Part shown: piece by piece, positions 946 through 44,877 of the stretch
How the letters are laid out: every line of letters starts with the position of its first letter
How positions within the stretch are numbered: the first letter of the stretch is position 1
DNA from: Branchiostoma floridae
Taxonomy: Eukaryota > Chordata > Leptocardii > Amphioxiformes > Branchiostomatidae
NCBI RefSeq assembly: GCF_000003815.2
Contig: NC_049980.1
Coordinates: 10,512,714-10,576,713 of the forward strand
Direction: 5' to 3'
DNA length: 64,000 bases
Notes under the pieces: generated by a model
The model's input: only the letters and a program-made list of their open reading frames with translations
What the model was told of the DNA's origin: nothing
The model's database searches: none
Translations under genes and position numbers: made by a program

Positions 946-1033
946 ATGTCTGGAGAGAGTGGTGTGCACTGGACGATGTCGGGGGGTTTCACTCTCGTGC
1001 TGTTCCTGGTACTTGGGGCATCCACCTCAACAG
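946..1033 (+). CDS. Signal-peptide exon of lectin unit A
   Basis: The ATG at 946 opens a short hydrophilic stretch, then a second in-frame Met, then a hydrophobic core (FTLVLFLVLGA) followed by small residues (STSTG), a typical secretion signal. The exon ends at 1033 with donor GTACGT after the first base of a Gly codon (phase 1), which fits the phase-1 acceptor of the CTLD exon at 2531. The true start could be either Met, at residue 1 or 11. Recognised from the sequence only. Confidence 0.7.
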
Positions 1034-3353
1034 GTACGTGGCATCTTTAAAAAAAATGATACATTACTGTCTCTATAGTTGCAGCGAAGTTTTTAACACT
1101 GTTCTGGAATTGAGGTGTACAAGAAAAGTACGAAAGTGTGAAAGGTGATCAGTGATAGGCTTTACACTTCATCCTGGTGTACCCAGGGTACTACAATAAG
1201 GAAGCGCTCTCTGTGACCTTCCCAGCGGTTGGATGGGTAACTTGATCCCCATAAATACGTAGACTAATAAAGCTGAAAACAAAGGCAGGGACTATGGATT
1301 AGCAAGTATTAGCATGACACTGGCCAAAGTCTTCAACTATTTTTCTGTACTGGTTTTTATGGAAATTAAACCTTATCGAACCATGCAGATGATGGTAACA
1401 AAGCTACATATAATCTAGTCAATACCATCTATGACTTACAGTTTTGAGAACCAACCTTGTATGTATTTATGGGGCTCAATTGACCCCTCAAACTACAGGG
1501 AAGGTCACAGTGGGAAGTACTTCCTTACTGTCCTACCCTGGGCACAATAGGCTGAATTTTAAACAAAAACAACATTTTTCATGGCCTTGGAACTTCGATG
1601 GAACTTCAAAATACTGTAAATGCATGCATTCAAGTTAGCGGGGATTCTATTTCATGGTAGCGGGAAAAGGACTTTTCGCGGTGTTTTTAAGTTCGCGGTA
1701 GCACCATGCACCGTACATCGTCTCTTACTGCCATGGAAAAATGATCGCAGTGGTTTTAAGTTCGCTGTGAAGCAGCAACCGCGAAAACCGCGAACATTAA
1801 ACCACCGCGAAAGTTTCTGCATTAAACAGTATCCGCGACCGGCTACATCGTATTGTCGTTTCATGACTGATAAACAACTGTCTATGGTGGCCATTTGTAT
1901 GCCCATTTGCGCCCAGAAGCAGGTAGGGAACAGTATATGGTCTAGTCTCAGCCAAAAGTCAGCAATATCAAAAGGCGTCCTATACTGCATTTGCGTACAT
2001 GTACTTCCACCGAGATTGTTATAAACATGTCAAACTGTATAGTTGTTTACTGCAAACTTCGGGAGATCGAGAGGATACAGTTATACGTGACTTGGCAGGC
2101 GTAAAGCGGGTATCTCACTGGACTGCGCCCACTTGTGCTGGGAAGTTGCACCGACTCTGTCCAAATTTTCCCTTGGTGTTACATTGACGGCGACAGAGAT
2201 GAGCAGAAAAATGGCCGCGCGCGAAATGTCAAATTTTCAGTTTCAATACAAAACAATACAAGATATGCTTATAGCCATATATATATATTATAACATGATA
2301 GTATTAAAACATGATATGTATGCTATCGAGATTTTGGTAATATGTTTTTTCACCAGGTTATACTCAAGTATATGTTTGGATAAAAACTCGTAACGTTGTT
2401 ATTTCAAGCACCAGTACCATGTGCACAACGATCAAAAAGTCCTAAATAGGGAATCGACATTTAATCCCAAGTTTAATTGGTTATCCATTACTACTTGAAT
2501 CATAAACAAGTTCATGGTTCTCCCAAACAGGCTGTCCCGGTGGTTTTACTAAGTTCGAGGGAGCCTGCTTCAAGGTGTACCACCAGATTGTTACCTACGA
2601 CCAGGCGAGGCAGTTTTGTGCCACCAAGGGGGGACTTTTAGCCATGCCCAAAGACAACAAGACAGACGACTTTCTGTGGAAGTTGAAGAACGCGGCGGAT
2701 TCCGGGGGCTATTTCTGGTTTGGTTTCAGCGACGAGAACTGGGAGGGCCGGTGGATGTGGGAAGATGGGACTATTCACAACAAGTCAGCGGACTGGAGCA
2801 ACTGGCGAGAGGGACAACCCGATAACCACAAAGGAGATGAAGACTGTGCACATTACAACTCTCAAGCGGAGCCGGGATGGAACGACCTGCCGTGCTCAGA
2901 CAAAGCGGCCAAGTTCATCTGTCAGACAACAGGTGTGTCTGACGACATTTCTTCGACAGTTGGGTTGCCATGGTGATCTAGAAATCAAATTAGTACCTCT
3001 CTGAGAAACACAAACTATAGATGAAAGCTACCGATGTTACAGCGACAGAGTATGCACTATGCGGCTGAAGCAGTAGACTGGTTTATTTGTTTCGGCAGCC
3101 ATAACGTACAAGGCTTATTTATGATAGCGTAAAATTGGTTACAAGAGTCTGGAAGTATTGAATTTCTCTTGCACAATGCAAATTGCTATCTTTTGTAGTG
3201 CATGTTTTAGCCTTGAACTTCCAAACCCGTACGATGTATCCTGAACTAACGACTGTTTATTTTCAGATGACGAGGCAGTGAATTGGTCCAGTACGACCAT
3301 GACGTCACTCGTGACCGACCAGATGGAAACGCCAGCATCGCGAGAAACTCCAG
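946..3353 (+). CDS. Lectin unit A: signal peptide, C-type lectin domain, Ser/Thr linker (incomplete gene)
   Basis: Three exons join in one frame: 946-1033, 2531-2932 and 3267-3353, all with GT-AG borders in phase 1. The product would be a secreted or membrane lectin: a signal peptide of about 25-30 residues, one C-type lectin domain (CTLD) of about 133 residues and a Ser/Thr-rich linker. The linker exon ends in a good donor, so the transcript must continue, but no further exon is visible before the second signal-peptide exon at 6938. It may be an alternative 5' end that splices into the downstream phase-1 exons of unit B, or a partial gene left by duplication. CTLD and linker are nearly identical to those at 7632-8516, which argues for a recent segmental duplication or gene conversion. 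Confidence 0.6.
1671..1816. repeat. Palindromic GCGG-rich repeat (MITE-like)
   Basis: The left arm (TTCGCGGTG...TAAGTTCGCGGT, 1674-1700) pairs with the right arm (ACCGCGAAC...CACCGCGAAAG, 1787-1813). A related internal copy lies between them. The arrangement suggests a non-autonomous hairpin transposon in the first intron of unit A. Open frames across it on both strands are by-products of the palindrome. Confidence 0.5.
1945..2240 (+). repeat. Dispersed repeat, copy 1
   Basis: This block shares long stretches with 5065-5300, for example ATATCAAAAGGCGTC and AACATGTCAAACTGTA, and both are followed by a similar block ending in a run like TATGTTTTTTC...ACCAGGTTAT (about 2340 and 5600). It contains the motif GGGTATCTCACTGGAC at 2108, which recurs as a terminal inverted repeat near 29549, so it probably derives from a DNA transposon. 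Confidence 0.5.
2531..2932 (+). CDS. C-type lectin domain exon A (QPD type)
   Basis: A complete 134-codon CTLD in one phase 1-1 exon. Six cysteines are in the long-form pattern: CPGG, GAC, QFC, EDC, LPC and ICQ. The hydrophobic core motif FWFG is followed by the calcium-site segment. The sugar-specificity triad is QPD (2815-2823) and the second calcium motif is WND; both are the forms known to favour galactose-type ligands with calcium. Polypyrimidine tract and AG lie just before 2531; donor GTGTGT follows 2932. It differs from the copy at 7632 by only three residues. Sugar preference is an inference from the family rule. Confidence 0.9.
3267..3353 (+). CDS. Ser/Thr linker exon A
   Basis: A 29-codon phase 1-1 exon, acidic at the start (DDEAVNW) and then rich in Ser and Thr ([11 protein letters not shown]...TPASRETPG). 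No fold is recognisable; it looks like an O-glycosylated spacer. The same exon recurs at 8406-8516 and, shortened, at 13215-13286, so it was duplicated with the neighbouring lectin modules. Acceptor TTTTCAG and donor GTACGAG are good. Confidence 0.75.
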
Positions 3354-3393
3354 GTACGAGTAATGGTAGGTCCCATTTGGGCCCGCAGGGGGG

Positions 3394-5679: not shown

Positions 5680-6330
5680 TGTCTGTCTGTCTTTGTCCGT
5701 GAACACCATAACTCGAGAAGCCTTCGATGGATCCTAATGATATTTGGTATGTGGGTAGGAGTCAGGAAAAGGAAGGTTAAGTTCGATAATGTCCCCCTAG
5801 CAGCTTGCTAAGGTACTGCAGTGGAACGTCCATTTTTTACATCTCGTGTTTTGGAAATGCTCTGGTTGTGATTTTTAAGTGGTAAATAGCCCTTGGGATA
5901 TAGAGTAAGTGCTGTGAGTTTGGACCCCCTAGCGGCCTCTTTCGAACTACAAACTTACAAACTTTGGACAAGAATAGCTCAAGAACATGTTGACGGATCG
6001 ACATGATTTTGGTATGTAGATAGCCTAAGTGATAACTTACATGATACTATACTATTTATGCAAATGAACAGCTAATTTGCACAATAAATGAGTAAAGTTG
6101 ATAAATCCACTGCATTCCATGATAGGACTTCGAAACTTGTCAAATACGTAACTGAGAATCATGTCAATTATGCAAATGATGACGCCATTTGCATAATTAA
6201 AGAGGAAATATGATTATTACATAGTGGAAAAAGATGGGAATTTCATACTTACAATTATGAAGCTTAGTGAAGGGGAACATTATTAGGCATAAATCATGCA
6301 AATTAGTTTAGTATTTGCATACTTTAGGAG
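5680..6330 (+). repeat. Dispersed repeat family with CCCCTAGCGGC and ATGCAAAT motifs
   Basis: Starts with a GTCTGTCTGT run, then CCATAACTCGAGAAG, TTTGGTATGTGGGTAGG, two CCCCTAGC blocks (about 5802 and 5927), TGACGGATCGACATGATTTT and several ATGCAAAT/ATTTGCATA octamers. The same ordered motifs occur in reverse orientation at 32540-33860, and partial copies lie at 7340-7520 and 11470-11600. Non-coding; it behaves as an interspersed repeat. Confidence 0.6.
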
Positions 6331-6937
6331 GAAACACTAAAAATTGACCTTCTCTACCACGATAAGACTTTCATGCTTTGGGCTTGTGCCTGTTTGATAG
6401 AGAAGATGATCAACCGAGACAAAATCATGCAAATTAGGACCATTTGGAGATGAGCTGCCAGATGCTGTACAAGCGCTAGCTGCCATATTCTGTACAAACA
6501 AATACAACAGGGATTCTAGTGTTACCAAAATGACAACAGAACTGCAGTGGATGTCACTTGAAAGTTGAAGACAGGAAAATGTCCAGACTTTGCATGATGT
6601 ACAAAATGACCAATAAACTGATAAGTATCTAATACAATTTCAACAAAGAACAAGAAACAGTCATGCCTTCAAATACCAGAGTTACCAACCTAAGGTTGAT
6701 GTGTTCAAAACATCGTATTTACTCATAACTATCGTATAGTGGAATCTATTATCACCAAGTACAGTAGGGGCATCTTCTCTGGATAGTTTTAAAGAACACT
6801 TGCAGATAGATGTGCAAAAAGTTAGGTGTGACGGGTCGTTCGGTGTAATATAACCAGCTGCTGTCGCGCCGCGTGCCTGCGAAGCTGGTGTGTTACGCCG
6901 AAGGGCGGTTATACCGGCTATAACAGATACAGATGGT

Positions 6938-7289
6938 ATGAGTGGAGTTCTAGTGTTTATAATAGCATGTTTCAATGTTTCTGCTATAGCGACTGTCTCA
7001 AATGAGGAACTATTCACCAAGGAGGAAGGTCACTTTTTCGGTGATTGGCCTGACCACATAGCAGCGTACAACAACATAGACGCAGACGAGTGTGCCCGCC
7101 GCTGTCTGCAGGGTCACGGCAGTTACGACGGCGTCAGTAGACCATGCCTGTCCTTTAACCATCGCCCCGCGGGATCGCCAGAGGGCGGCAGTGCACGGTG
7201 TTGGCTCCGTAGTAGTGACAAGGACACGGCGGCGTCTCTTGGTTCTGAGTGGGACAGTTGGCCTCACCGACATTACTACCAGAGGAAAG
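6938..7289 (+). CDS. Signal peptide plus PAN/apple-like domain exon (unit B start)
   Basis: The ATG at 6938 is followed by a clear signal peptide ([18 protein letters not shown]) and then about 95 residues with the PAN/apple pattern: [24 protein letters not shown] and a terminal YYQRKG. Four cysteines fit the core of the fold. The exon ends at 7289 in phase 1 (donor GTAAAT). An in-frame ATG exists at 6890, but its extension is not signal-like, so 6938 is preferred. An AG at 6926 would also allow inclusion as an internal phase-1 exon, although its pyrimidine tract is poor. Confidence 0.75.
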
Positions 7290-10200
7290 GTAAATACATC
7301 ATCTTTACCCTCGCCACAAGGTTATGTTTTGAGCGTGTCTGTCAGTCTATCTGTCTGTCTGTCTGTTTGTCCGTGTACACCATAACCCGAGAAGCTTTGG
7401 ATGGATCCTGATGATGGATCCAGACTTTGCATGATGTACAAAATGACCAATAAACTGGTGGACGTACCGTAGGTTGGTAGGGGTTAGGAAAACGAACGTC
7501 AAGTTAGGTAATGACCCTAGCCTAGCGGCTTTCTAAAGTACAACATAAGAAAAAGCCAGCTTTTTCGAAAGCACTTGTTTCATCTGTGTCTATCATTTGA
7601 ATCATAAACAAGTTCATGGTTCCCCCAACAGGCTGTCCCGGTGGTTTTACCAAGTTCGAGGGAGCCTGCTTCAAGGTGTACCACCAGATCGTTACCTACG
7701 ACCAGGCGAGGCAGTTTTGTGCCACCAAGGGGGGACTTTTAGCCATGCCCAAAGACAACAAGACAGACGACTTTCTGTGGAAGTTGAAGAACGCGGCGGA
7801 TTCCGGCGGCTATTTCTGGTTTGGTTTGAGCGACGAGAACTGGGAGGGCCGGTGGATGTGGGAAGATGGGACTATTCACAACAAGTCAGCGGACTGGAGT
7901 AACTGGCGAGAGGGACAACCCGATAACCACAAAGGAGATGAAGACTGTGCACATTACAATTCTCAAGCAAAGCCGGGATGGAACGACCTGCCGTGCTCAG
8001 ACAAAGCGGCGAATTTCATCTGTCAGACGACAGGTGTGTCTGACGACATTTCTTCTGTTTACCAATGACGGTTGGGTTGCCATGGTGATCCAGAAACCTC
8101 TCTGATCAGCACAATCAAACTATAAATGAATACTACCGACATTGTATGCATCTGAAACAAATAAACCAGTCTACTACTTCTAAATCTGAAGCAGTAGACT
8201 GGTTTATTTGTTTCGGCAGCCGTAACGTACAAGGCTTATTTATGAACGCCTAGAAAATGCAAGATCATAGATACATCATAAGTTACAAGAGCTGGAGGTA
8301 TTCTCTTGCACAAGGTAAATCGGTATCCTATGTAGTGCATATTATAGCCTTGATCTTCTAAACCGGTATAATGTATCGTGTACGAACCGACTGTTTTATC
8401 TTCAGATGACGCCGCAGTGGAATCTTCAGATGACGCCGCAGTGGATTGGTCCAGTACGACCATGACGTCACACGTGAACGACCAGATGAAAACGCCAGCA
8501 TCGCGAGAATCTCCAGGTAATGCATGCTAAGGTCTGCGCCGAGGCCCTGGTTGATTTTAAATGCGAGTTTAAAAAAACAGCCAAGGGACCCAGATGTCCC
8601 CCAATATAGCCCGGTAGCCGCAGTGTGTCCTATGCCACGTAGGGGCCACGCCCCAAAGTGCGACAAAACAGGCCGTAAACTGCCCGAAGGGGCCCCAAAT
8701 GGGACTGCAGCATATAAATGTTGCATCAGGTATGTGGGGCGCTGGTTCGGGATTTTCAACATTGACTAATACCGACAAAGAAAGTTTGCCGTGGAAGGGA
8801 CTTCGCCGCGAAAACAAGGCGAAACTCCTCCACAACAGTTTCCCTTCCGTGGCAAACTCCATTCCACGACTAATGTCCTTTCCAGGCATAGAGAACCTTC
8901 GCCAACATTGCAAACTAGCCAACCAGCGCACAAGCACCCCAATAAGATAAAATCCAGCTTCGCTCAAAGTTTGCACTATTAGGCGGCTAGGGCAATAAGC
9001 CCCCAACAGCGAGAAGGTGTGTATTTTGCAACAGGCTAACCAGATGATGTATCTACATGTGTGTTTCCCAGGTGATCACGACTTGCAGATGATAACCTTC
9101 CCGGCTCCACGCAGCGTCAGTAACTACGCCAGGCTGATGACACCACGGTCTCAGGACTTGATGAGCTTTACTTTATGTCTGCACATGCGCACCGACCATT
9201 CCTACAGAAACAGATACAGATACAGGCAGACAAGTCTGGTCAGCTACGCCGTGGGAGGTGGCGAGCATGCTAACGAGCTGCTCCTTTTCAACGATGTAGA
9301 TAACGGTGGTTTTCAAGTAAGTTTACAACCTCGTTCGATATTCTGATCAAAACCTGTAGTGTACACGGCTATTACAACTTTCCACTGCCTCTTGTAATCT
9401 CCAAGCAGTTCTTGCGTGGCATAAGATACACATGTAGTATCATAAGCTGGGGAAGGAGTTTAGCCGGCAGAGGAGTTAATTGGCTTCGTGGTGGAATAAA
9501 ACTCCTCTGCTGGCTTAACGCCTTCCCCAGCTTACGTCACTTCTTATTCCACCGCAAGATCTGCTTGGAGATTATGCCTCTCGTACTTCTAGCAATACAT
9601 GTCGCAATGTTAAGAAAATCGTCAATGTTATTGAAATATATCATACAATATTATATATGTGTGTTCCAGTTATGGGTACGAAATGTGAATGCTGGCACGG
9701 TAGACTTGCCCGTTTGGGACGGCGCGTGGCACGAGATTTGCGCCACCTGGCGGAGCAGTGACGGACATTGGCAGATCTTCAGCGACGGCGCGCTTCGGGC
9801 CTCTGGCTCGGGGCTTAACACGGGGGGAACAGTGCGCCGTGGCGGCACGTGGATCCTCGCGCAGGACCAAGACACAGTCGGGGGAGCTTTCGTGGAGTCT
9901 CAGGCGTTCAGTGGAGAGCTCTCGCAGGTGAACCTTTGGGACCGCGTGCTGTCTTCGGATCAAATCGGAACAGATTGGTCAGTGTTCTGTAAACACCATG
10001 GCAACATGATCGACTGGGCAACAGCAAACATAAATATTTCCGGACTGGCCAGTAGTGATCAGTATCTCTGCGGTACGTACAGCAAACCTACTGATTGTCC
10101 AGATGACTATCAACCATTCCAAGGCACCTGCTACAAGGCGTTCGACGTTACCGCCACTTTTCACGAGTCCCTACGCATGTGTGGTGAAGACGGTGGAACA

Positions 10201-13200
10201 CTCGCCATGCCTCGCGATATGAAAACCAACAACTTTCTGGTCGGGCTGAAGAACTCGGTCGATCAGAAATCCTCGTTTTGGTTCGGCCTTCACGACAGGA
10301 TAGAGGAAAATTTTTGGAAGTGGATAGATGGAGAAGAACTGGGGGACTTCACAGACTGGGGACCCGGGGAACCTAATGACTATAAGCAACGTAATGAGGA
10401 CTGTGTCGTATACTACCCGCCCAAGAAGAATAAGTGGAACGACATGCCATGCCTTAACAAGCTGAAATTTATCTGCCAAGTGGATACAACAGGTATGAAA
10501 CGAGTCCAAGCCGAATAGTTTTGATTTGTAGTAAAAAATACTATACTTGCAAGAAATACTTGGTGTTTTGGACGCAGCATGAAACAATTGATGAATTGTC
10601 ATGAAACTTGGTCTATGGTTAGGTCATGTCCTGTTGAAGAAATTATTAGATTTTGGGCCGCAGCCGGCTTTCATTAGTACCGCAAAACTTCCGGGTTTAA
10701 TATCCCGTGTTCTATGCAAGCTATGATTGGTAGCTAGCTCGTGTAAGAAATGCCTTTAAATGTGAGCTTCATGCAAGTCCTAAGATAATATTACCACAAA
10801 ATAGTAATAAGACATTCTATGAAATTGGATGAAATTTGTTTTCTTTGATAGAAATATGTTTAGGCTCCATCACTGACGGCAAGAAGGCCAACCTTTATGA
10901 TAAAGGGTTTCTTGCTATTTCTGTCTCTTTTTCATAACATCCTGGGTACACCTGACTAGGTTACACGCCCTACGTCAATGAGAAAATCGCCTTCAAGGTG
11001 TTCGCCCAGTCGAAGACTTACGAAGCTGCGAAGCAGACCTGTGCGTCAGATGGAGGCCATCTTGCAGATCTCAAGACACAGGCGTTACACGACTTTGTTT
11101 TGGCCATGATCCAGAATGTGACGCCAGTAGGGACTACTGATCGGNNNNNNNNNNNNNNNNNNNNNNNNNNNNNNNNNNNNNNNNNNNNNNNNNNNNNNNN
11201 NNNNNNNNNNNNNNNNNNNNNNNNNNNNNNNNNNNNNNNNNNNNNNNNNNNNNNNNNNNNNNNNNNNNNNNNNNNNNNNNNNNNNNNNNNNNNNNNNNNN
11301 NNNNNNNNNNNNNNNNNNNNNNNNNNNNNNNNNNNNNNNGGTTTTGATGGACATAGTCTTTAACATGTTTCTTCTTCTAAATCTCTTCCGCAACTTACAT
11401 CTAGGTCGCCCTGAACTTTTGATACTTATATTCCCCTCCATGTAAATGGTGTGTGTGTGTGTGTGCGCGCGCGTGTCTGTCTGTCTCTGATATGTGGCAT
11501 GTGGATAGGGACTGGGAAGACAAAAAGGTCAAGATGGCGATTGGGCCACCTGGTGTCTGACCTTGGTACTTCAGCAATACTTCTTTTCTTTGTATCTTTT
11601 GTCCTGGACATACCGTGGCCTTGATTTTATGGTGGCAGGTAGACTTTGATGTAAGGAAGAAGTAGTGTAGGACCCCCTTGCAGTATGTTCTGGATTGTTG
11701 TCACATTTTTGTAAATCATAAAAGGAGGATATCTAAACAAAGGAACGACATTCGGTATGCAAGTAGTCAAGACGTTGTGCACAATGACGTGCAATTTATG
11801 CGGTAATAGGATATCATTTGAAAATAGTATCTTTAGGATATCGTTTGAAAATAGTATCTTTATTGCGCACCTCAATTCAATGGATAGGTTGAGAGCACGT
11901 GGACCTGGTCTGATGGGACTCCGGTCAGCAACTGCGCCTTCGCCAACTGGGTACCGGGGGAGCCTAACAACGCCGGCACAGGCCAGGATTGCGGGCAGCT
12001 ATGGACGGAGAAAGGTTTCAAATGGGACGACGACTTTTGCGGATATCAGCAGTACTTCATCTGTCAAAAAGGTATTTTACCACGTTTAGCACTTCCGTGT
12101 TCGGAGGTATTCTCTTTAGTGTGTTGGTATGTCTGTGTCTAGATTCTCCGCACTTAATTCCATATACTATGTATAGGCTGGTCTCGTGACAATTTGGCAT
12201 GAGGGTACGTGAAACAAATGCCCACTGGAATTTGTGAACACATTTGGCCTAACCCAATTGGCAATGGTTCATTTTGGAACTTTCTCCACTTTCAGGTTCT
12301 TCATCATTATATGACAGCCAAATGACCTCATTTTGTTGTGGGGGGGGGGGGGGGGGGGGATGAACTTTTACACCCGAAAAAGGAATTTGGAAATGGGGAT
12401 TTGGAAGAATCCATTTCGCATGGGGGATCGAAGTGTCGATTTTTGCATAAGGGGCTCAAATTCATTTTTGTAGAGTGGTATTAAGTGATCAATGGACACA
12501 ACATGTAATGTTATCAATCATTATCAATGAACCACAGTTAAACAAGATATACGAGAAACCGTATATATTTCAGAGAGCTAAGGGATATTCACAATTTTCC
12601 GACATTTTATTTCAACATAATTGTATTGAGAATGTATGTCCTGATGAACATCAGTCCTAGCTTCAATCAGATGTATTTGATAATCAATGGTTTCTGATTC
12701 TTCCAATTTGTAAACTTGCAGGTTCCGGCGAAGAAAACTCCTGTCGACGATCAGAAGGTATAGCTCTATGAATGCTGGACATCTTCTAAGTTGTGTATGT
12801 GATTGTAGACAAGGCATATCAATATATGATGTCAGCATTGCAACATATAACTGCAAGAGGTATATTTGTATAAACTCCTTGAATGTTGATTATGCATTCT
12901 CATCTCATCTATCCCTCAGTTTAACGCTTTGACCCTTGGCTCGCCACGAAAATCTGGAAACCAGTTTTCTGCACCCTTTTCTGTTTTTCTTAATGTTTCA
13001 CTTATTAGTGTCACGTAGTGTGATTAGGCATTAGGCAAGCATTAGCACAACTTTTTCCGTCCTACCAGTAGAAATGAACATCTTTACAGTTAGTAAAGCA
13101 AACGTAAACGTATTCGCATATTAGATTATGAAACATTCGCGTACGACTCCACAGTCTAGTTCTATGTGGCAGTGCTTCAAGCAAAGCTCAAGATTCAGTT

Positions 13201-14406
13201 TTCCTCTGCATTAGAGCGCCCTCGCACAACTATGACGTCACTCGTGACTGACAAGATGGGTACGCCAGCGGCTCGTGAATCTTCAGGTAAGGTTTAGGTC
13301 CCAATCGCATCGGTGCCCATCATCAATTCTCCATTGTGTTCTGCACCCTAGAAGCTTCCTTAGCTCTTGGAGTTTCTTTACTGTTGTAGGAAGGGCTCGG
13401 CCTCTGTGCTTTAGGTCTGTGTTCAGCAAGCTGACAGTGTCTACCCTTGCGTGCCTTGTATCTGCTGGAGCATAGTATTGAGAATTCAAGGGCACAAACA
13501 TGCATGTGTGATTGATAAAGTATGTTTTTCTGTTTTTCAATCAGAAACGTGTGGAGTATCAGCGTTTCGCCACTTCCCCCAAACTGATTGCGGCGGACCT
13601 GCAGTGGACATAGTCAGCCATTTTGGTGTTACCGTCGATTCCTGTGCAGCGGCTTGCTGTGCCGACCCGACATGCCTGTCGTTCCAGTACAACACACACT
13701 CCAACTGTTACTTGAAAAGTACGATCTGCTCTGCCGAGGAGAAAGTGAATGCAGCAATAGGAAACATGTACGATCGGATTGATTCACCAGGTAGGATCAT
13801 TCAGTCCATTGGTAACATCATTTTTATTGCATTTCAGATAAAAATACTGTAAATAAATCATATAAGGATTACATAATGAAAATAGACATATAAGACAAAA
13901 ACTGGAAAAACTTCAACAGGTACAAACATAAACCACAGATCCGAAGATGAATAACAATACTATAATGGGGAGAAAATGATACCAACCAAATAAACTAAAA
14001 CAGTAATATAAAGGTTGTATTCACGGTTTTTGGTCTGTGTGTATGTGTCAGTGTCTGTAGTCATCTGAATACAGTAGAGAGGCAGAATATGTGGGTGCAA
14101 ACGGAAGCTTGGTGCAAACGAAGACTTGCAGGATGGAATGGTTGACTTGTTTGGCCCGGGTCCAAAGTTGGCCCCGCAGGCTAGCATGAATGGATTGGTA
14201 GATGGAGGCAGGAACTCGAGGACTGCATGTAAGCTAAAGTACAAGGGGCATGTACCGTTTTACATATGGACATTGACAATGGAAACTATTTAAAACGTCT
14301 GCTGGTTTTTGATTAGTCTGACATCAGACACTCCACACCTCGAGAATACTGACAGGAAGTTATGGCAAAGGTCACAGGAAGGCAACAGAATAGGTTATGA
14401 AAGACT

Positions 14407-14471
<65 letters not shown>

Positions 14472-17400
14472 ACACACACACACACACATACACAAACACA
14501 CGCACACACAAACACACACACACACGCACACACAAACACACACACACACACACGCACACACACACAGACGAACGCCGCTGCCTAAAACATAACCTTCATT
14601 TTTACGGAGGTAGTAATGTGATTCTGATGTTCACCTTTCTTGCACACTGTCTAAGGAACCGTCCCCGTCAGCCCACACACGGTTAGAGCCATGGAAGGCG
14701 AGACCGTCACCCTCCCCGTGCAGAGTAAGGTGGATCTACGCAAAGCGATCGCGCTGACGTGGAGCCGGGTGGTCGGCGAGTCGGATATTTTAAGAGTCAC
14801 TGTGTTCATGTACTCAGCCGGATCCAAGGGTCGCGCCTTGAGGCCACTGCTAGGGCGTGCCTCCTTAAACATTGACGGTTCGCTGCGGATAGATGATGCC
14901 AAACTTTCCGACGAGGGCGAGTACATCATGACGAAAATCATGCCCTTTAGCGGACAAACGGAGGAATACGTCAAGCTTGTCATAATCGGTAAGAGACACA
15001 TTCTTTATCTTTCGGTATCTCGTGTAATCAGCATGTCTCACATGTGCCACACCATTATCTTAATATACATACATTTTTGTTTAGACATACTAATCTTATC
15101 AAATATGACATTCAAGTAGCAATCTATCTTCATGAAACGTCCATTTAATGGTACTCATGTATTTCTCTAGTAGCCAATGTCGGTGCTTACTTGGGTGTCA
15201 AAATGTCTTGCGGGGTAAACGGACATTTTTACTGGATAACAGTAATACTTATAGTGACGGTGTGATTAAATGTTTTAGACTAATCGCTTAAAATTACTTC
15301 TGACTATTCACACATGACCCTGGCCGTCGTTTGCCCGCCCCCATCTCAACATTCTCTACAACTTTTCGACATTTCACAAGACCGTTCACGATTGATTTCG
15401 TTACTTTTATTACCAATTGCAAGTTATGATTCCAAAATGAAAGTTTCTCTCTAGGTGGTAATGTAAAGGACTCCACCAGATCCTTGAGGCACATTGTAAT
15501 ATTCTTTTGGATCCAACAATTTGTGCCAGTTTTATGCAAAGTTGGGCCAACTGTATTTCCAGTGTTACACGATGAGGAAAACTCTTAACTCTAAACTGTG
15601 CCCAACCCCACTTCCTGCAACCTTTTTCTCATAACTTTGTGGTACTTTTGCACTACAACTCTGTTGGTGTCTCCAACGCGCCTAGCATTCAAATTCAGAT
15701 ATTGCGGAATTACTGACACACAAACAAACAAACAAACAAACAAAAACATCAACTGTTCACAATACCTTAACCTTCACGAAGGTAAATATCATCACTCAAA
15801 ATGTATTTCACAGATAAATCAACTTACAAGAGACCGCAGTTGACTTTGGAGCTGTTCTATCATAAAGCGGGTGAGTTCTCATGCAACAGATTGAATATAT
15901 TAGAATACAAATGCACTAGTAATGCGTTGAAAATAACAAAGATAGTTTCATAGTTTTTTCTTCAAGAAATTATGTAACATGCGAATCAATTCTGTTGATA
16001 TCTTATTTGGATATCTTTGTGGACTTGAGTATCTTCATTATTTTAAAACAAAATCAACGTTTCATGCATTTTAATGTCATCAGTGTCAAATTAACGTTAC
16101 TTCATGTATATTCTTGCAACAATTATGTCTCTTTTCTGACGTTTCAAGATTGTCCAGAAGACTACCTACCATTCCAAGGCATCTGCTACAAGGCGTTCAA
16201 CGTAACCGCTACTTTCCACCAGTCCATCCGTGCGTGTAGTGAAGACAGTGGAACACTCGCCAGGCCTCGAGATAAGGAAACCAACGACTTCCTGGTCAGC
16301 CTAAAGAACTCGGTAGATGAGGGATCTTCGTTTAGATTCGGCCTTCATCATGACGTCTTCCAGGAAAACGTCTGGAAGTGGATAGATGGAGAAGAACTGG
16401 GGGACTTCACAGACTGGGGACCCGGGGAACCTAATAACTATAAGCAATTTGGGGAGACCTGCGTCGTATACTACCCGCCCAAGAAGAACAAGTGGAACGA
16501 CATGGCATGCTTTTCCAGGCGAAAATTCATCTGCCAAGTGGATAAAACAGGTTATTACATGCATTTTGGTTATCCATATTTGTCACTGTATGCCATGAAC
16601 CTAAGCCAAAGTTGTTGAACGATTCATACGTAGAAAAAGCCTCGTATCATATCCTTTCACAGCCAATGTTCTTCAATTACGTACATTTTCTACTGCTTGT
16701 ACGTTTCTCTCTCCATATCTCAGCATATCTAACCTTTATCTTCACCTTTGGCCCGGCGCCCGGCAGAAGCCGTCCGCATCCAGAGCTCGAGCAATGATGT
16801 TCAGTATGATGGCAAAGCTGTACTTGAATCTCCCGTCTTTAGCACCAACTGCAGCAACAGTTCGCTCGTTTTCCACTACCAAATGGAAGGCTCCGCTGTC
16901 CCTGCCACACTATACGTCTCCATCGTCGTTAATGAGTCAAACTCTGCCCCTGAATTGCTGGGAACATTTCCGTTCGAGCTGACCAACGGACAAAAGAATC
17001 AGGTGCATATGGATCTTCAAAGGGAGCAGCCGTTTCGTGTGGTCTTCACTGCCGAACTAGATCATCACTCGGCCAACTCAACGGACAGCGTAGGCCAAAT
17101 ACATCTGTATGATGTCGTCGTTCTCGACAAATGTAGACCCATAGGTACGCCAAATGACGTTGCCTACATAGGGTTGGATGTCCAAGATGTGTCCAAATTA
17201 TCTTAAACAGAGCGTTCGGGTGAAACAATATTGTTCTTGGATTTTACATGTCTTCTAAATTAAGTTTGTATATTATTGGCGTTTGTGGTTGTTTTGCTTA
17301 AAAGCATCTGTGTCTTTCAGTTTCTTTGCTTCAGTCGTAGAATATAGTGATTGTATAAACCATGCATATGATAGTCAGAGAGTGTTTACATGACTTGAAT

Positions 17401-18631
17401 ACACATAGGCAATGAGCAAAGCGTGACAAGCTAACGTAATCCTTGTGTTTGCTCCAATGTTAAAGCAGTATTTCTCTTTCCCTTAGACGGATCAGCCCAA
17501 GCAGTGCTTTTCCAAGGTAAGTGTATACAAATGTGAATATACTCAACACTGAACAGGCACTAGTTTCTTGTAACGACATCAAGATATCAATTGTTAATCG
17601 GCTGAATTTGGTTGATCTTTCTGTAGATTGTAGGAAGTGATGTGTGTGAGTAACCAGTTGGTATACCGATTGTCCTGATCATTATAAACACTTCTGTTTT
17701 GTTGATCTCTTTTGCCATCTTGTCTGGTCTTGCACTAACAAATTGGTTCGTTCCTTTTCTTTCTACAGAGCCTGCTCCTTCCAAAGTACCCGTTCTTTCT
17801 AATGACCAAAGTCTTCCCAGTGGAGCTATTATTGGGATCATCGTGGGGTTAGTTATCGTGGCAGTAGCGATTGTAACAGGAGTGGCGGTTGCCAGGTGGG
17901 CAGACATTCGGCATGTACTATAACTCTATTTCCTATCCTGTACGATACTATTGCAGCCCTCTCTGAACCGCGCTATTTTAGCATGAAAGAAATAGAGAAA
18001 GTGCTGCATTCTATTGTGGTCATTGTATGTCTTCGAAAAGGGTTGGGCCTGGGAGTAACAAAGATTCTATGAGGAACCCTTTCGTATTTTCATTAAAAAG
18101 AAGTGGGCATATGACTTTCAGCAGAACTGCGGTTCACCCACGTCCACACAGTAGCCTGGAGTCCACCCTTGTTTGGTTCGTTCGCTCCCGAAGATCAAGG
18201 GTAATGACCTTCCGGGGAGGACCAAAGCTAACAGGGCTGGTCAGGCTAGCTACATCCACAGCTCAGGCTGAAGCTCCAGTTGTCCTTCTCTTTCACCTAA
18301 CGTGAGGGCGTCGCCTACAAAGTAACGCTAACAGTGACTTGCATTGTGGTAGACATTAACAAAAGCCTTTATGCTCAATATATACCCCCTTCCATTTGAG
18401 ATGTGCACTTCATTCTGTGTAAGACTGCGATCTCACTACGTTCATCATCCCTTGTAATTTCACACTATTATCATGAATGACAATGTCATGATTCGTGTGT
18501 ATTTGCGCTAACTTTTTAGATCTTGTGTTCCATGCAGACGGATGAGAGGCCAATATGACCGCTTCATGACAACCAGCACAACCGTCCTGATGATGCGTGA
18601 CAATGTGATGTTTGAACCGGATGTGGAATAG
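6938..18631 (+). CDS. Mosaic membrane lectin receptor: PAN, CTLD, pentraxin, CTLD, CTLD, PAN, Ig-like, CTLD, MAM, TM
   Basis: A multi-exon gene assembled from splice borders that all agree in phase. Exons: 6938-7289, 7632-8033, 8406-8516, 9072-9316, 9670-10492, 10960-gap, 11888-12071, 12722-12757, 13215-13286, 13545-13790, 14656-14988, 15814-15870, 16149-16550, 16767-17144, 17487-17516, 17769-17895 and 18538-18631. The product is about 1,360-1,400 residues (part is lost in the gap). It is a type I membrane protein with signal peptide, a large ectodomain of carbohydrate- and pattern-binding modules, one transmembrane helix and about 31 cytoplasmic residues with a YDRF motif of the YxxPhi endocytic type. 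Role (inferred): cell-surface recognition of glycans, perhaps uptake, in innate immunity or cell adhesion. The combination of pentraxin, Ig-like, MAM and four CTLDs is not one I can name. One or more exon joins could be alternative. Confidence 0.72.
7340..7520 (+). repeat. Partial copy of the CCATAAC...GATGGATCC repeat
   Basis: Contains a GTCTGTCTGT run, CCATAACCCGAGAAGC and GATGGATCCTGATGAT like the start of the repeat at 5680. It also has a second match: CCAGACTTTGCATGATGTAC at 7420 repeats 6581-6602. It lies in the intron before the CTLD exon. Confidence 0.5.
7632..8033 (+). CDS. C-type lectin domain exon B1 (QPD type)
   Basis: A 134-codon phase 1-1 CTLD exon, exactly 5,101 bases downstream of its twin at 2531 and the same length. 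Long-form cysteines, FWFG core, QPD triad (7916-7924) and WND motif are all present. Only three residues differ from copy A: F to L after FWFG, E to K in NSQAxPGWND, and K to N before FICQ. The flanking intron sequence (ATAAACAAGTTCATGGTTC) is also shared, so the duplicated DNA starts outside the exon. Predicted to bind galactose-type ligands in a calcium-dependent way, by family rule. Confidence 0.9.
8154..8214. repeat. 27-bp perfect-type hairpin in the duplicated intron
   Basis: Left arm 8154-8180 and right arm 8188-8214 are reverse complements with one mismatch in 27 and a 7-base loop. Only the right arm exists in the first copy of the duplication (about 3068-3094), so the left arm arose after, or at, the duplication. 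Confidence 0.8.
8406..8516 (+). CDS. Ser/Thr linker exon B1 with duplicated acceptor
   Basis: Homologue of the linker exon at 3267, 37 codons, phase 1-1 ([23 protein letters not shown]). The first 24 bases, including the splice acceptor (ATCTTCAG followed by ATGACGCCGCAGTGG), are tandemly duplicated, so splicing at 8405 or at 8429 gives products that differ by eight residues (DDAAVESS). Donor GTAATG follows 8516. Confidence 0.75.
9072..9316 (+). CDS. Pentraxin domain exon, N-terminal half
   Basis: Encodes the first half of a pentraxin/LamG-like fold: [39 protein letters not shown] and NELLLFND. These are the recognisable strands of pentraxins such as CRP and neuronal pentraxins, including the single Cys in the LCLHMR strand. 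The acceptor at 9071 is phase 1; the exon ends at 9316 in phase 0 (donor GTAAGT) and joins the next exon at 9670 in phase 0. This is the only phase-0 junction in the gene apart from the one inside the split CTLD, and both lie inside a domain. Confidence 0.85.
9393..9574. mobile_element. Hairpin MITE in the pentraxin intron
   Basis: The two ends are long inverted repeats (left TAATCTCCAAGCAG, right CTGCTTGGAGATTA), and the inner arms also pair (GCTGGGGAAGGAGTTTAGCC with GGCTTAACGCCTTCCCCAGC). The 7-mer TGCCTCT lies at both 9386-9392 and 9575-9581, as expected for a target-site duplication. The element splits the intron between the two pentraxin exons. An open frame running through it into the next exon is accidental. 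Confidence 0.8.
9670..10492 (+). CDS. Pentraxin C-terminal half fused in one exon to a C-type lectin domain (EPN type)
   Basis: An 823-base exon. The first part continues the pentraxin: WHEICATW (the pentraxin signature with one extra residue), [10 protein letters not shown], then AQDQDTVGG with calcium-binding acidic and Gln residues, then [16 protein letters not shown] and the closing Cys of FCKHHGN. From about 10094 a full CTLD follows ([24 protein letters not shown], the triad EPN at 10369-10377, EDC, WND and FICQ). EPN is the mannose-type motif by family rule. Between the domains is a 21-base stretch (10073-10093) that starts with a perfect donor, GTACGT, in phase 1. It ends in phase 1 at 10492 (donor GTATGA). 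Confidence 0.88.
10960..11144 (+). CDS. C-type lectin domain, first part, running into the assembly gap
   Basis: A phase-1 acceptor after CTGACTAG opens a CTLD start: [42 protein letters not shown] and [10 protein letters not shown]. These match the beginning of the short CTLD form with its first helix and Cys. The frame is open up to the Ns at 11145. The donor must lie in the gap, because the sequence just after it (11340 on) hits a stop quickly. Confidence 0.8.
11145..11339. other. Assembly gap (195 N)
   Basis: A run of Ns that removes the middle of one CTLD (expected FWIGL-type core) and its splice donor. The gap size in the assembly may not be its true length. Confidence 0.99.
11809..11861 (+). 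repeat. 27-bp tandem duplication
   Basis: GGATATCATTTGAAAATAGTATCTTTA is followed at once by a copy with one substitution (ATCG for ATCA), ending about 25 bases before the next lectin exon. Confidence 0.8.
11888..12071 (+). CDS. C-type lectin domain, second part (EPN, WDD)
   Basis: Completes the CTLD begun at 10960: [13 protein letters not shown], an extra Cys in [11 protein letters not shown] at 11960-11968, [15 protein letters not shown] and YFICQ. The second calcium motif is WDD where most family members have WND. A start at 11888 (AG at 11886-11887, phase 0) gives the typical VExTWTW beginning; 11894 is the alternative. The exon ends in phase 1 (donor GTATTT). Because the first part is phase-0 compatible only if its donor in the gap is also phase 0, the join is inferred. 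Confidence 0.8.
12340..12359 (+). repeat. Poly-G tract (20 G)
   Basis: Twenty consecutive G residues in the intron after the split CTLD. This is the kind of homopolymer where the assembly length is unreliable. Confidence 0.9.
12722..12757 (+). CDS. Short linker exon (12 codons)
   Basis: A pyrimidine-rich tract and AACTTGCAG precede 36 bases coding for [13 protein letters not shown] in phase 1-1, followed by donor GTATAG. The phase and borders fit, but the exon is short and has no domain, so it remains provisional. It contains one Cys. Confidence 0.45.
13215..13286 (+). CDS. Ser/Thr linker exon, third copy
   Basis: A phase 1-1 exon of 24 codons whose core ([20 protein letters not shown]) is plainly homologous to the linkers at 3267 and 8406. 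The N-terminal acidic part is replaced by ERPR. A pyrimidine-rich tract ends in CATTAG; the donor is GTAAGG. Confidence 0.65.
13545..13790 (+). CDS. PAN/apple-like domain exon 2
   Basis: An 82-codon phase 1-1 exon with the apple-type cysteine pattern: [44 protein letters not shown]. The core [15 protein letters not shown] is diagnostic of the fold. Acceptor TTTTTCAATCAG and donor GTAGGA are good. These domains bind proteins or carbohydrates. Confidence 0.8.
14411..14566 (+). repeat. (CA)n microsatellite
   Basis: About 156 bases of CA dinucleotide repeat with a few interruptions (CG, AACA, TACA). Long open frames of alternating Thr/His, or Cys/Val on the other strand, come only from this repeat. 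Confidence 0.97.
14656..14988 (+). CDS. Immunoglobulin V-like domain exon lacking both canonical cysteines
   Basis: A 111-codon phase 1-1 exon with V-set hallmarks: [10 protein letters not shown] (B strand), the core Trp in [40 protein letters not shown] (D-x-G-x-Y of the F strand) and YVKLVIIG. The expected B-strand Cys is Val (codon 14718-14720), and the expected F-strand Cys is Met (codon 14928-14930), so the usual intra-domain disulfide is gone on both sides. Cryptic Ig-fold recognition is from motif order only; a different beta-sandwich is possible. Confidence 0.75.
15718..15746 (+). repeat. (CAAA)n microsatellite
   Basis: A short run of CAAA tetranucleotides in the intron after the Ig-like exon. 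Confidence 0.9.
15814..15870 (+). CDS. Short linker exon (19 codons) after the Ig-like domain
   Basis: TATTTCACAG precedes 57 open bases in phase 1-1, coding for DKSTYKRPQ then [11 protein letters not shown], with donor GTGAGT. Phase agreement on both sides and good sites support it. There is no domain. The next exon (16149) is also phase 1. Confidence 0.5.
16149..16550 (+). CDS. C-type lectin domain exon (EPN type), membrane-proximal
   Basis: A 134-codon phase 1-1 CTLD closely related to the one at 10094: [18 protein letters not shown], a FRFGLHH core (Arg replaces the usual Trp), [15 protein letters not shown], triad EPN (16437-16445), ETC in place of EDC, KWNDMAC and FICQ. The two share most residues, so one is an intragenic duplicate of the other. 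The loss of the core Trp may affect the fold. Mannose-type specificity is inferred from EPN plus WND. Confidence 0.9.
16767..17144 (+). CDS. MAM-like domain exon
   Basis: A 126-codon phase 1-1 exon. Features typical of the C-terminal part of MAM or related jelly-roll adhesion domains are [30 protein letters not shown], a central strand with [19 protein letters not shown], and the end [14 protein letters not shown]. Several NxS/T sequons are present. MAM domains act in cell adhesion and receptor dimerisation. The aromatic-rich N-terminal MAM half is not obvious, so the call is at superfamily level. Confidence 0.7.
17487..17516 (+). CDS. Micro-exon (10 codons) before the transmembrane exon
   Basis: TTCCCTTAG precedes 30 open bases in phase 1-1 ([11 protein letters not shown]), followed by the strong donor GTAAGTG. 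Small and without a domain, but the strength and phase of both sites argue for a juxtamembrane exon. Confidence 0.55.
17769..17895 (+). CDS. Transmembrane exon of the receptor
   Basis: Acceptor TTTCTACAG. The exon encodes a Pro/Ser stalk ([13 protein letters not shown]) and one hydrophobic helix of about 23 residues ([17 protein letters not shown] then TGVAVA) ending in Arg. It ends in phase 2 (donor GTGGGC), matching the next exon at 18538. The Gly-rich helix face (IIGIIVG) could mediate helix packing. Confidence 0.8.
18146..18256 (+). repeat. Dispersed repeat, partner of an inverted copy at 21080
   Basis: Contains GGAGTCCACCCTTGTTTG and CGCTCCCGAAG; the reverse complement of 21085-21137 gives the same ordered motifs. 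It lies in the last receptor intron. Confidence 0.45.
18538..18631 (+). CDS. Cytoplasmic tail and stop
   Basis: The acceptor CCATGCAG in phase 2 completes the Arg codon and reads [14 protein letters not shown] and then a Met-rich end before TAG at 18629-18631. The basic start after the helix follows the positive-inside rule. YDRF fits the YxxPhi sorting motif used in clathrin-mediated endocytosis. The last codons and the stop lie in the first unit of a tandem repeat (18603-18735). Confidence 0.78.
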
Positions 18632-18735
18632 TTAGACTGTGATGTTTAAAACGGATGGGGAATAGTTAGAATGTGATGTTTGAACCGGATGTGGAATAGT
18701 TAGAATGTGATGTTTAAAAAGCGGATATGGAATAG
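18603..18735 (+). repeat. 34-bp tandem repeat spanning the stop codon
   Basis: Four units of GTGATGTTTGAACCGGATGT followed by GGAATAGTTAGAAT or close variants. The receptor stop codon TAG at 18629 is inside unit 1; units 2-4 are 3' untranslated. Confidence 0.85.
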
Positions 18736-19025
18736 TTTCAGTATCAGAGCACATGAATCTCAACGCAGGAAAGCCCCTAGTTGCAAACTTGTATGGCCAA
18801 CAATATGTTAACGTTATAGCTATTGTTACTTTTTTATCCATCCTTTGTATTATGTCATGAGAATCTATCACCCGGTGAAGTCTCTAGAAACATGGTTTAT
18901 TACGTTATCACTGCCCAAAATGTAAGGATCGATAAGACGAAGCGTGATATTGATAACATAATGGTGCAGTTTATTGTATAGACTGGATAATTCGATTCTT
19001 TTCAAAACTTATATCCCGTAGCCCT

Positions 19026-19444: not shown

Positions 19445-20531
19445 CTATGGGCTGAGTCTTTCCCTACGTAACTTTTCATTTTGTCTCATTGCCAGTTTCC
19501 AGTCCCAAATAAACCGCTCTTGTCTCAGTTGCTTACAAAATTTAGCATCTACCGTCCATGACATGCTCCACTTTGTTGCCGGAAAACTCCTGCTACCTTT
19601 AGGGTCGATCCTGCAATGTTCGTTCACATTACTGTTCATCGTGCGAAAGTGTTCAAGTTCCAACGCGAAGTCTTCCCCTCCCTTTGCGACCTCCTCCCAT
19701 AACGTTCTGTTGTAGTGTTCATACAGCGCGTAGTCTATGGAGCTCCACTTGCGATGGTTCTCCATTGCCAGGTCGCTCAAACTAGATGACTTGTAGTAGA
19801 ATTTTCGGTAGTTTCTCGCCGTCCAATCGTAGAAAATGTCCGCTAGAGACCAACACAGAGTCCGCTTGAGGACAACAAGGGATTCATCCAGATGTTCAAG
19901 AATCATGACAAACGGCACGTCCGTTGTTACCTCTCGAAAATGCTGTTCTGTTGACTCATCACCAACATCCTTCATCTGATCGAAGCCTAACACAAAGGAC
20001 TGGAAATTTCTAGTAGGCGAGCGTCCTTCGTAGAATTTGCTGTCGATTTCTGCGTAGTCAGTAACGTTTTCGAGAAACGTCTGAATCGGGGTTATTGATA
20101 AAAGTTTGTATTTAGTATTCAGGTGAATGAAATTGAACATGGACTTCAGATGGTCGAGGAGATGTCTCATGATGGCGACACGGACCGTGTCGGGAGGCAT
20201 CCTCGCCTGGATGGTTTCTGGATGGTACCTGGCGTGATGGGTGAGGATGTTGTACACCCCACCACTCACGGGATAGGCGTCCCCAGGGGAGGGGTTGTTG
20301 GCCCATGAGAAAGACGCAGGGTTTCTACCTCCGGGTAGCATTACGGTCAGGTTGTGGAAGTAGCCATAGCGAAGGAAGACACTCTGAACTGTAGTGGACC
20401 CTGCCTTGTGAACTTTTACGAAGGCGACATTTTGCTTTGGTTCACAGGTAGGTGGCTGCCATTCGGGAATGTGTCGTCCCTGGGTTCGGCTCTGCGTAGG
20501 AGATTCAAGCCGTTTAATGGTTTGACTCAAT
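19445..20531 (-). CDS. Sulfotransferase exon 3: catalytic domain and stop
   Basis: The acceptor TTTCTTTTTAG (minus strand) joins in phase 2 with exon 2, giving GLSQTIKR at the junction. The exon carries the whole PAPS-binding and catalytic domain, including HKAGSTT, the Arg/Ser region of the 3'-phosphate site, FVMILEHLDESLVVLKR and CRIDP. The stop is TAA/TAG-type at 19445-19447. A longer open frame to 20569 includes intron sequence and should not be used as the start. Confidence 0.9.
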
Positions 20532-25262: not shown

Positions 25263-39049
<13,787 letters not shown>

Positions 39050-44870: not shown

Positions 44871-44877
44871 AAATAGT

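What the first reader, a model, noticed from the sequence alone, without database searches (positions are those of the whole stretch)
6938..18631. A single receptor combining pentraxin, four C-type lectin domains, two PAN domains, an Ig-like and a MAM-like domain
Seventeen exons with matching phases assemble a type I membrane protein whose ectodomain mixes pattern-recognition modules that are usually on separate proteins. Pentraxins and C-type lectins are known as innate-immunity and glycan-binding families; their fusion to an Ig-like and a MAM-like module on one transmembrane chain is unfamiliar to me. A YDRF endocytic motif in the tail hints at ligand uptake. Domain calls are from sequence motifs, and the function is inference.
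Basis: partly seen in the sequence, partly recalled or inferred. Interest (0 to 1): 0.8.

Follow-up and report, generated by a model that had tools for sequence, protein, structure and literature searches.

The report
Patchwork lectin-pentraxin surface receptor gene
A predicted animal gene, probably from a lancelet, strings a pentraxin, four C-type lectin domains, two PAN domains, an Ig domain and a partial MAM domain onto one membrane anchor; it looks like a real but fairly typical product of exon shuffling, and its function is untested.

Summary
The observation largely holds. Profile searches find every named domain. The 17 exons join into an open chain on both sides of a 195-base N gap that hides part of lectin domain 3, with one signal peptide, one membrane segment and one stop. 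The pentraxin C-half and lectin domain 2 share one exon, so that fusion does not rest on exon joining. Matching phases are weak evidence: nearly all introns are phase 1. Better support: a scan finds no credible second start exon downstream, and a gene on another chromosome keeps PAN, lectin, pentraxin and split lectin in that order, in a locus that also has REJ domains.

New: the fused exon most likely arose by intron loss. All 18 paralogous pentraxin exons that align to the final Cys have a GT one base after its codon; the window keeps that donor (10072) but reads through it. A second signal-peptide exon (946) precedes a near-copy of lectin exon 1.

Not supported: the YDRF motif (31% of shuffled tails have one). 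MAM lacks its first third; PAN1 barely passes.

Most likely a single-pass, Ca-dependent glycan-binding receptor made by exon shuffling. No transcripts were available.

The parts
946..1033 (+). Upstream signal-peptide start exon (SP0), alternative first exon or start of a separate partial copy
   Evidence: One of the two credible signal-peptide-plus-phase-1-donor start exons found in 1-19000; donor U1 duplex -9.0
2531..2932 (+). CTLD0, near-identical copy of CTLD1
   Evidence: Pfam 2.1e-20 (protein 10); dN 0.009, dS 0.114 against CTLD1
3267..3353 (+). link0, copy of linker exon 8406-8516
   Evidence: Self-alignment 2495-3356 to 7597-8519, 83%
6938..7289 (+). Signal peptide + PAN1
   Evidence: PAN_1 21.7 bits, cut-off 21.4; hydrophobic N-terminus
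7632..8033 (+). CTLD1 (QPD ... WND)
   Evidence: Pfam 2.4e-21; motifs
8406..8516 (+). Ser/Thr-rich linker exon
   Evidence: Splice sites, phase 1-1; copy at 3267, and 3293-3356 also matches 13226-13289
9072..9316 (+). Pentraxin, N-terminal part
   Evidence: Pfam Pentaxin 7.5e-35 on joined exons; own-genome match
9670..10492 (+). Pentraxin C-terminal part and CTLD2 (EPN ... WND) fused in one exon
   Evidence: Single open frame (404 aa); Pfam
10073..10093 (+). 21 bases read as a probable remnant of a lost intron; donor TGCG|GTACGT (exon end 10072) retained
   Evidence: Same donor position in all 18 of 24 paralogous exons that align to the final Cys; likeness to the first intron bases judged by eye
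10960..11144 (+). CTLD3, 5' part, runs into the N gap
   Evidence: Pfam 4.9e-4, 21.2 bits; homologous exon in L014/L015
11145..11339 (.). Run of N hiding the rest of CTLD3a and its donor
11888..12071 (+). CTLD3, 3' part (EPN ... WDD)
   Evidence: Pfam 4.5e-11; homologous exon in L014/L015
12722..12757 (+). Small exon, uncertain
   Evidence: Splice consensus only
13215..13286 (+). Linker exon, relative of 3267-3353
   Evidence: 3293-3356 to 13226-13289, 81%
13545..13790 (+). PAN2
   Evidence: Pfam 2e-7; 68% identical over 47 aa to the PAN exon of L021
14656..14988 (+). Ig V-set domain
   Evidence: Pfam 7.4e-8; 74% identical copy at C15:8863056
15814..15870 (+). Small exon, uncertain
   Evidence: Splice consensus only; the chain stays open with or without it
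16149..16550 (+). CTLD4 (EPN ... WND), copy of CTLD2
   Evidence: Pfam 3.5e-16; 84% DNA identity to 10093-10494, limited to the exon
16767..17144 (+). MAM-like module lacking the first third
   Evidence: Pfam 6.6e-9, profile 49-147/158; all-beta single-sequence model, pLDDT 74.6
17487..17516 (+). Small exon, uncertain
   Evidence: Splice consensus
17769..17895 (+). Transmembrane exon
   Evidence: Kyte-Doolittle 3.04 over 19 residues
18520..18631 (+). Cytoplasmic tail with stop
   Evidence: AATAAA at 19026 and 19038 downstream

Best explanation
One gene encoding a single-pass type I membrane protein whose ectodomain was assembled by exon shuffling from symmetric phase-1 exons. Shown: the domains, a chain that is open on both sides of the gap, and pentraxin and CTLD2 in one exon. 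Inferred: that this exon arose by intron loss; that the protein sits on cells exposed to microbes or food particles and binds glycans in a Ca-dependent, multivalent way, CTLD1 being of the galactose type (QPD/WND) and CTLD2-4 of the mannose type (EPN with WND or WDD); that the pentraxin adds a further ligand site or an oligomerisation surface; and that the short tail makes it a capture or tethering receptor or a co-receptor. Two start exons (946 and 6938) and the retained donor at 10072 could give isoforms with or without PAN1 and CTLD2; this is a prediction.
For: Domains. Open chain, one stop, one signal peptide, one TM by hydropathy. Pentraxin C-half and CTLD2 in one exon. No credible signal-peptide start exon between 7.3 and 19 kb (one site, 9574, is spurious: its donor lies 12 bases before an acceptor) and no AATAAA between 9495 and 13852. 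PAN - CTLD - pentraxin - split CTLD in the same order in a C7 gene. Shared donor position in all 18 of 24 paralogous pentraxin exons that align to the last Cys. Internal duplicates in both halves of the locus (CTLD2/CTLD4, linkers). CTLD0/CTLD1 dN 0.009 against dS 0.114 points to purifying selection. Ca/sugar motifs EPN/QPD and WND (their meaning is recalled).
Against: No transcript, protein or second-species sequence was available. The link between CTLD3 (12071) and PAN2 (13545) rests on splice sites and the lack of another start only; internal duplicates would also arise between neighbouring genes. The start-exon scan has fixed thresholds and can miss weak ones. AATAAA also occurs at 7449, 8160, 9495, 13852 and 13989 inside the locus. 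CTLD3 is broken by a gap. PAN1 is marginal, the MAM incomplete and without another match in the genome at E 0.001. CTLD2/CTLD4 dN/dS about 0.44 is weak constraint. The C7 gene shares no match to PAN1, Ig, MAM or TM-tail. Three small exons are unsupported. Function is inferred from families alone.
Confidence: 0.68

Rival explanations
1. Two neighbouring genes: a secreted PAN1-CTLD1-pentraxin-CTLD2-CTLD3 protein that ends shortly after CTLD3, and a separate PAN2-Ig-CTLD4-MAM-TM receptor.
For: If the donor at 12071 is not used, CTLD3b reads to a stop about 70 bases on (frame ends 12139). CTLD2/CTLD4 and the linker exons are duplicates, as tandem genes would show. The C7 gene that shares PAN, pentraxin and split CTLD has no match at E 0.1 to the Ig, MAM, TM-tail or PAN1 of the window in the 43 kb held (L014 and L023 contain runs of N).
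Against: No credible signal-peptide start exon between 7.3 and 19 kb and no AATAAA between 9495 and 13852. PAN2, the first named module of the supposed second gene, and not PAN1, is the window module that matches the PAN before CTLD and pentraxin in the C7 gene.
Confidence: 0.18
2. The gene really starts at 946 (signal peptide - CTLD0 - linker - CTLD1 - linker - pentraxin ...), with five lectin domains, and the 6938 exon is an alternative promoter or not used. This reading concerns the 5' end only and is compatible with the best explanation.
For: SP0, CTLD0 and link0 lie on the same strand with phase-1 borders and donors in the range of the others; CTLD0 is under strong constraint; PAN1 is a marginal PAN.
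Against: 6938 has a clear hydrophobic N-terminus and an open PAN-like exon with a usable donor. The 2.5-3.4 kb block could be a recent partial duplicate or an unmerged haplotype (dS 0.11).
Confidence: 0.35
3. A decaying or non-expressed pile of shuffled exons (pseudogene).
For: High exon turnover in lancelets (PMC4284660, passages); lectin C-type domains are over-represented among dispensable lancelet genes (PMC12373286, passages); the MAM is incomplete.
Against: No stop inside the 17 exons as read from the assembly (outside the gap); strong constraint between CTLD0 and CTLD1.
Confidence: 0.1

Closest known systems
REJ-domain (polycystin-1-like) gene of the same genome at C7:11.08-11.11 Mb (L021, L015, L022, L023), with a second copy at 11.13 Mb (L014)
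   Same: PAN (68% over 47 aa to PAN2), CTLD, pentraxin C-half (63%), CTLD split into two exons (59-60%) in the same order
   Different: Starts with CUB, carries F5/8C, Laminin_G_3, Sushi and REJ domains; no match to the window's PAN1, Ig, MAM or TM-tail. That all these exons are one gene was not tested, and no GPS, PLAT or channel domain was found in the three L023 frames scanned
Macrophage mannose receptor family (MRC1, MRC2, LY75)
   Same: Several CTLDs on a type I chain; these are the best CTLD matches of CTLD2 among solved structures
   Different: No R-type lectin or fibronectin type II domain; 4 CTLDs among unrelated modules
Neuronal pentraxins
   Same: Best solved relative of the pentraxin domain is neuronal pentraxin-2, E 9.1e-32; a membrane pentraxin (NPTXR) exists (recalled)
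   Different: Those carry no CTLD, PAN, Ig or MAM (recalled)
F-type lectin - pentraxin chimeras of Xenopus and others (PMC5712786, passages seen)
   Same: Lectin domains joined to a pentraxin on one chain
   Different: F-type, not C-type lectin domains; no PAN, Ig or MAM in the passages seen
Lancelet exon-shuffled 1-1 phase genes (PMC4284660, passages seen)
   Same: Symmetric phase-1 module exons, Ig domains among the shuffled modules, very rapid gain of domain pairs
   Different: This particular combination is not mentioned in the passages seen; the words lectin and pentraxin do not occur in that main text

Membership tests
Pentraxin domain proteins | Pentaxin profile above cut-off and HxCxS/TWxS signature (signature recalled) | tested here: met
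   120.8 bits against 25; HEICATWRS in the exon
Pentraxin domain proteins | Ca-binding residues of CRP/SAP | tested here: inconclusive
   QDQD replaces QEQD of neuronal pentraxin-2 in the alignment; other positions differ; residue roles recalled
Pentraxin domain proteins | Pentameric assembly | not testable with these tools
   No structure of the assembly could be made
Ca-dependent C-type lectins | Lectin_C fold with EPN or QPD and WND (motif meaning recalled) | tested here: met
   CTLD1 QPD/WND, CTLD2 and CTLD4 EPN/WND, CTLD3 EPN/WDD
Mannose receptor family | R-type lectin, FN2 and 8-10 CTLDs (recalled) | tested here: not met
   Pfam finds neither R-type lectin nor FN2 in the exons scanned; four CTLDs
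Polycystin-1/REJ family | REJ domain and several TM segments | tested here: not met
   No REJ in the exons scanned; chain ends after one TM
Lancelet 1-1 exon-shuffled genes | Module exons bounded by phase-1 introns and shared with other genes | tested here: met
   Phases; Ig exon 74% identical at C15, PAN/pentraxin/CTLD3 shared with C7. That the genome is a lancelet's is inference
Endocytic receptors with a YxxPhi signal | Tail motif beyond chance | tested here: not met
   One YDRF; 31% of 20,000 shuffled tails have a YxxPhi
Single transcription unit | One mRNA across 6938-18631 | not testable with these tools
   No transcripts held

The most novel reading that the evidence does not exclude
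A combinatorial glycan receptor whose ectodomain can be re-cut by splicing: two alternative first exons swap PAN1 for CTLD0, and the ancestral splice donor kept inside the pentraxin-CTLD2 exon (10072) lets the cell drop CTLD2, so that the sugar-binding face changes without any new gene.
Probability: 0.15. Interest if true: 0.55.

Novelty: new variant of a known kind. Interest (0 to 1): 0.38.

Why it matters
If expressed as one chain, it shows which recognition modules an early chordate lineage joins on one receptor, and the pentraxin-CTLD2 exon looks like a clean case of two shuffled modules welded by intron loss, with the old splice donor still readable. It would also give a defined, testable protein for asking whether shuffled lectin ectodomains bind microbes. 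It is less surprising than first thought, because the same genome holds other pentraxin-lectin neighbours and lancelets gain domain pairs very quickly.

Tried and rejected
Phase matching as proof of one gene: rejected, since symmetric phase-1 exons fit each other anywhere. YDRF as an endocytic signal: rejected as not above chance; the same script found no acidic dileucine signal. Uniqueness of the pentraxin/CTLD neighbourhood: rejected, 5 of 20 fetched loci show a CTLD within the 10-kb stretch; in L001 the CTLD and the pentraxin each sit beside collagen-like frames and may be separate genes, and L014 and L015 are near copies, so the figure is an upper estimate of independent fusions. The 129 matches (a lower bound: 150 candidates were scored) fall into 61 clusters when joined within 6 kb; the window is one, and 20 of the other 60 were fetched as 10-kb stretches, two more only as short pieces. 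Uniqueness of the fused exon: kept with limits. Of the 129 matches, 15 lie in open frames of at least 270 aa, which are 10 frames; the window's holds a CTLD, and none was found in the DNA held for the other nine. For one of these, C2:21674951, only 3 kb of a frame of 2534 aa was held, and the frame at C5:28688 may be cut at the left end of L003. Another match of the MAM module: none besides itself at E 0.001 (the first look offered one candidate). Fold comparison of the MAM model: not completed, so the MAM call rests on Pfam and a single-sequence model. Genome searches for relatives of PAN2, PAN_1 and the whole pentraxin-CTLD2 product did not complete; none was sent for PAN1, CTLD4 or the tail. 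Literature: the searches (listings) and the passages showed no report of a C-type lectin - pentraxin - PAN - Ig - MAM chain; most subscription papers are not held, so this is not proof of absence.

The species (a lancelet, by its 513-Mb genome and gene content, from memory) is inference; no call names it.

Full report
Setting. The window is C2:10512714-10576713 of a 513-Mb genome in 431 contigs. Size and gene content fit a lancelet; this is inference from memory, no call names the organism.

Domains. Two weak points: PAN1 only just passes, and MAM covers profile positions 49-147 of 158, so its first third is missing. A single-sequence AlphaFold model of the MAM exon is all-beta with mean pLDDT 74.6, which fits but does not prove a MAM fold; the fold comparison did not complete. 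Against solved structures the pentraxin is closest to neuronal pentraxin-2 (E 9.1e-32) and lectin domain 2 to the mannose receptor/LY75 group.

Gene model. Seventeen exons with GT-AG borders join into an open chain on each side of the gap: 706 residues up to the gap at 11145-11339, 658 after it, one stop at 18631. Fifteen of 16 junctions can be read; the donor of CTLD3a lies in the gap. Only the N-terminus and one C-terminal segment exceed 1.6 in a 19-residue hydropathy scan, so type I topology is the natural reading. Introns are phase 1 except inside the pentraxin (phase 0), between TM and tail (phase 2) and inside lectin domain 3 (hidden by the gap). Symmetric phase-1 exons fit each other anywhere, so phase agreement does not show one gene. 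Three short exons rest on splice consensus alone, and the frame stays open without 12722-12757 or 15814-15870.

Is it one gene? Four observations favour it. The pentraxin C-half and lectin domain 2 are in one exon with one frame. A scan of 1-19000 (+ strand, fixed thresholds) for signal-peptide-like start exons with a phase-1 donor finds 946 (and 976 in the same frame), 6938, and 9574, whose donor lies 12 bases before an acceptor and is spurious; there is none further on that could start a second gene, and no AATAAA between 9495 and 13852, while 19026 and 19038 follow the last exon. AATAAA does occur at 7449, 8160, 9495, 13852 and 13989 within the locus. A paralogue keeps the order: of 20 pentraxin loci fetched as 10-kb stretches, 5 hold a lectin exon in the stretch (L001, L014, L015, L016, L019). 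In L021 with L015 the order is PAN (68% to PAN2 over 47 aa), lectin, F5/8C, pentraxin (63%), then a lectin domain split into two exons like lectin domain 3 (59-60%); L014 is a near copy. Finally the locus has internal copies in both halves: lectin 2 and 4 (84% DNA identity, confined to the exon, dN 0.139, dS 0.315) and the linker exons; these would also fit tandem genes. The remaining doubt is the step from 12071 to 13545, where two genes could meet; I give that 0.18.

A signal-peptide exon at 946, a lectin exon at 2531 and a linker at 3267 precede 6938 on the same strand. The lectin exon differs from lectin exon 1 by 3 of 133 residues (dN 0.009, dS 0.114), which means recent copying under constraint. 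The gene may have two promoters, or five lectin domains, or the block may be a separate partial copy or an unmerged haplotype; the data do not decide.

Origin of the fused exon. Of 24 paralogous pentraxin 3' exons in the fetched loci, 18 align to the final Cys, and all 18 have a GT one base after its codon, usually GTAAGT. Several of the 18 are near copies of each other, so they are not 18 independent cases. Of the 6 that align less far, 3 show the same TGYG|GT pattern in phase 1 a few codons on (L010, L017, L018), one shows a pattern match in another phase far off and two show none. The window has TGCG|GTACGTAC at that place but reads on through 21 bases into lectin domain 2; by eye the first of those bases resemble the first bases of the paralogous introns. 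Lectin 4, its closest copy, still has its own acceptor. The simplest inference is that an intron was lost and two phase-1 modules were welded. The kept donor forms a U1 duplex of -6.5 kcal/mol, reached by 3.4% of 716 other GTs in the locus, while 5 of the 15 readable donors of the model are weaker. Splicing from 10072 to 10960 would stay in frame and give pentraxin followed directly by lectin 3, as in the C7 gene. Among the 10 open frames of at least 270 aa that carry a Pentaxin match, the window's is the only one in which a lectin domain was found (one of the other nine was held only in part).

Sources of the modules. The Ig exon is 74% identical to one at C15:8863056; 42 matches in all, most on C14 and C15. 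The two share the splice donor, some intron and a further intron stretch of about 200 bases (66.8%) not matched in the other 23 loci held then, with dS 0.47. The C7 gene that shares PAN, pentraxin and split lectin lies in a stretch that begins with a signal peptide and CUB and goes on with Laminin_G_3, F5/8C, Sushi (one frame scanned, more by eye) and two REJ pieces. I read it as a polycystin-1/REJ-like receptor; this rests on REJ alone, since three further frames of L023 gave no GPS, PLAT or channel match, and that these exons form one gene was not tested. No match to the window's PAN1, Ig, MAM or TM-tail was found there. [quoted passage not shown] The MAM exon has no second match in the genome at E 0.001.

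Mechanism. Lectin domain 1 has QPD and WND, domains 2 and 4 EPN and WND, domain 3 EPN and WDD; by established rules (recalled) this predicts Ca-dependent galactose-type and mannose-type sites. The pentraxin has QDQD where neuronal pentraxin-2 has QEQD; whether it binds Ca is open. I think the likeliest function is multivalent capture of glycan-bearing particles or microbes at a cell surface, probably in feeding or defence epithelia. The tail of 36 residues has one YDRF, which 31% of shuffled tails also show, no acidic dileucine, and a Cys pair near the membrane; other signalling motifs were not scanned. Uptake or signalling is therefore not supported by sequence. All of this is inference from families.

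Comparison and novelty. It works like a multi-lectin receptor of the mannose-receptor sort but is not a member of that family (no R-type lectin, no FN2). It carries a pentraxin domain but no evidence of pentamers. Lancelets gain more than ten new domain pairs per million years, with exon shuffling biased to 1-1 phased exons (PMC4284660, passages); lectin C-type domains are over-represented among dispensable lancelet genes (PMC12373286, passages); pentraxin-lectin chimeras with F-type lectins exist in Xenopus (PMC5712786, passages). Searches showed no report of this exact combination in the held library. I file it as a new variant of a known kind, interest 0.38.

Noticed in passing
L021/L015/L022/L023 (C7:11.077-11.110 Mb): REJ-domain (polycystin-1-like) locus with CUB, PAN, C-type lectin, F5/8C, pentraxin, split C-type lectin, Laminin_G_3, F5/8C, Sushi and REJ domains; a near copy of part of it lies at 11.13 Mb (L014).
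   Followed up: partly
L001:1-797 and L001:4263-5593: Collagen-like repeats next to a C-type lectin exon and, separately, next to a pentraxin; may be collagen-lectin and collagen-pentraxin genes in one cluster on C5.
   Followed up: no
946-3353: Signal-peptide exon plus near-identical copy of lectin exon 1 and its linker upstream of the reported start.
   Followed up: partly
3389-3578 and 4712-4861: Inverted repeats of 150-190 bases (73%) made of AAAAGGAACG-like units, possibly the ends of a transposable element in the intron after link0.
   Followed up: no
19448-20614, - strand: Open frame with a Galactose-3-O-sulfotransferase match, E 5.2e-47, next to the lectin gene on the opposite strand.
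   Followed up: no
31855-35547, - strand: Exons of a protein kinase (Pkinase 5e-24 and 3.8e-12), MAK/ICK-like from memory.
   Followed up: no
44735-45427: Reverse-transcriptase fragment (RVT_1 3.9e-11) of a transposable element.
   Followed up: no
61517-61972: Tandem array with a period of about 56 bases.
   Followed up: no
63669-63998: BTB domain exon (4.9e-22), perhaps a kelch-like gene running off the window.
   Followed up: no
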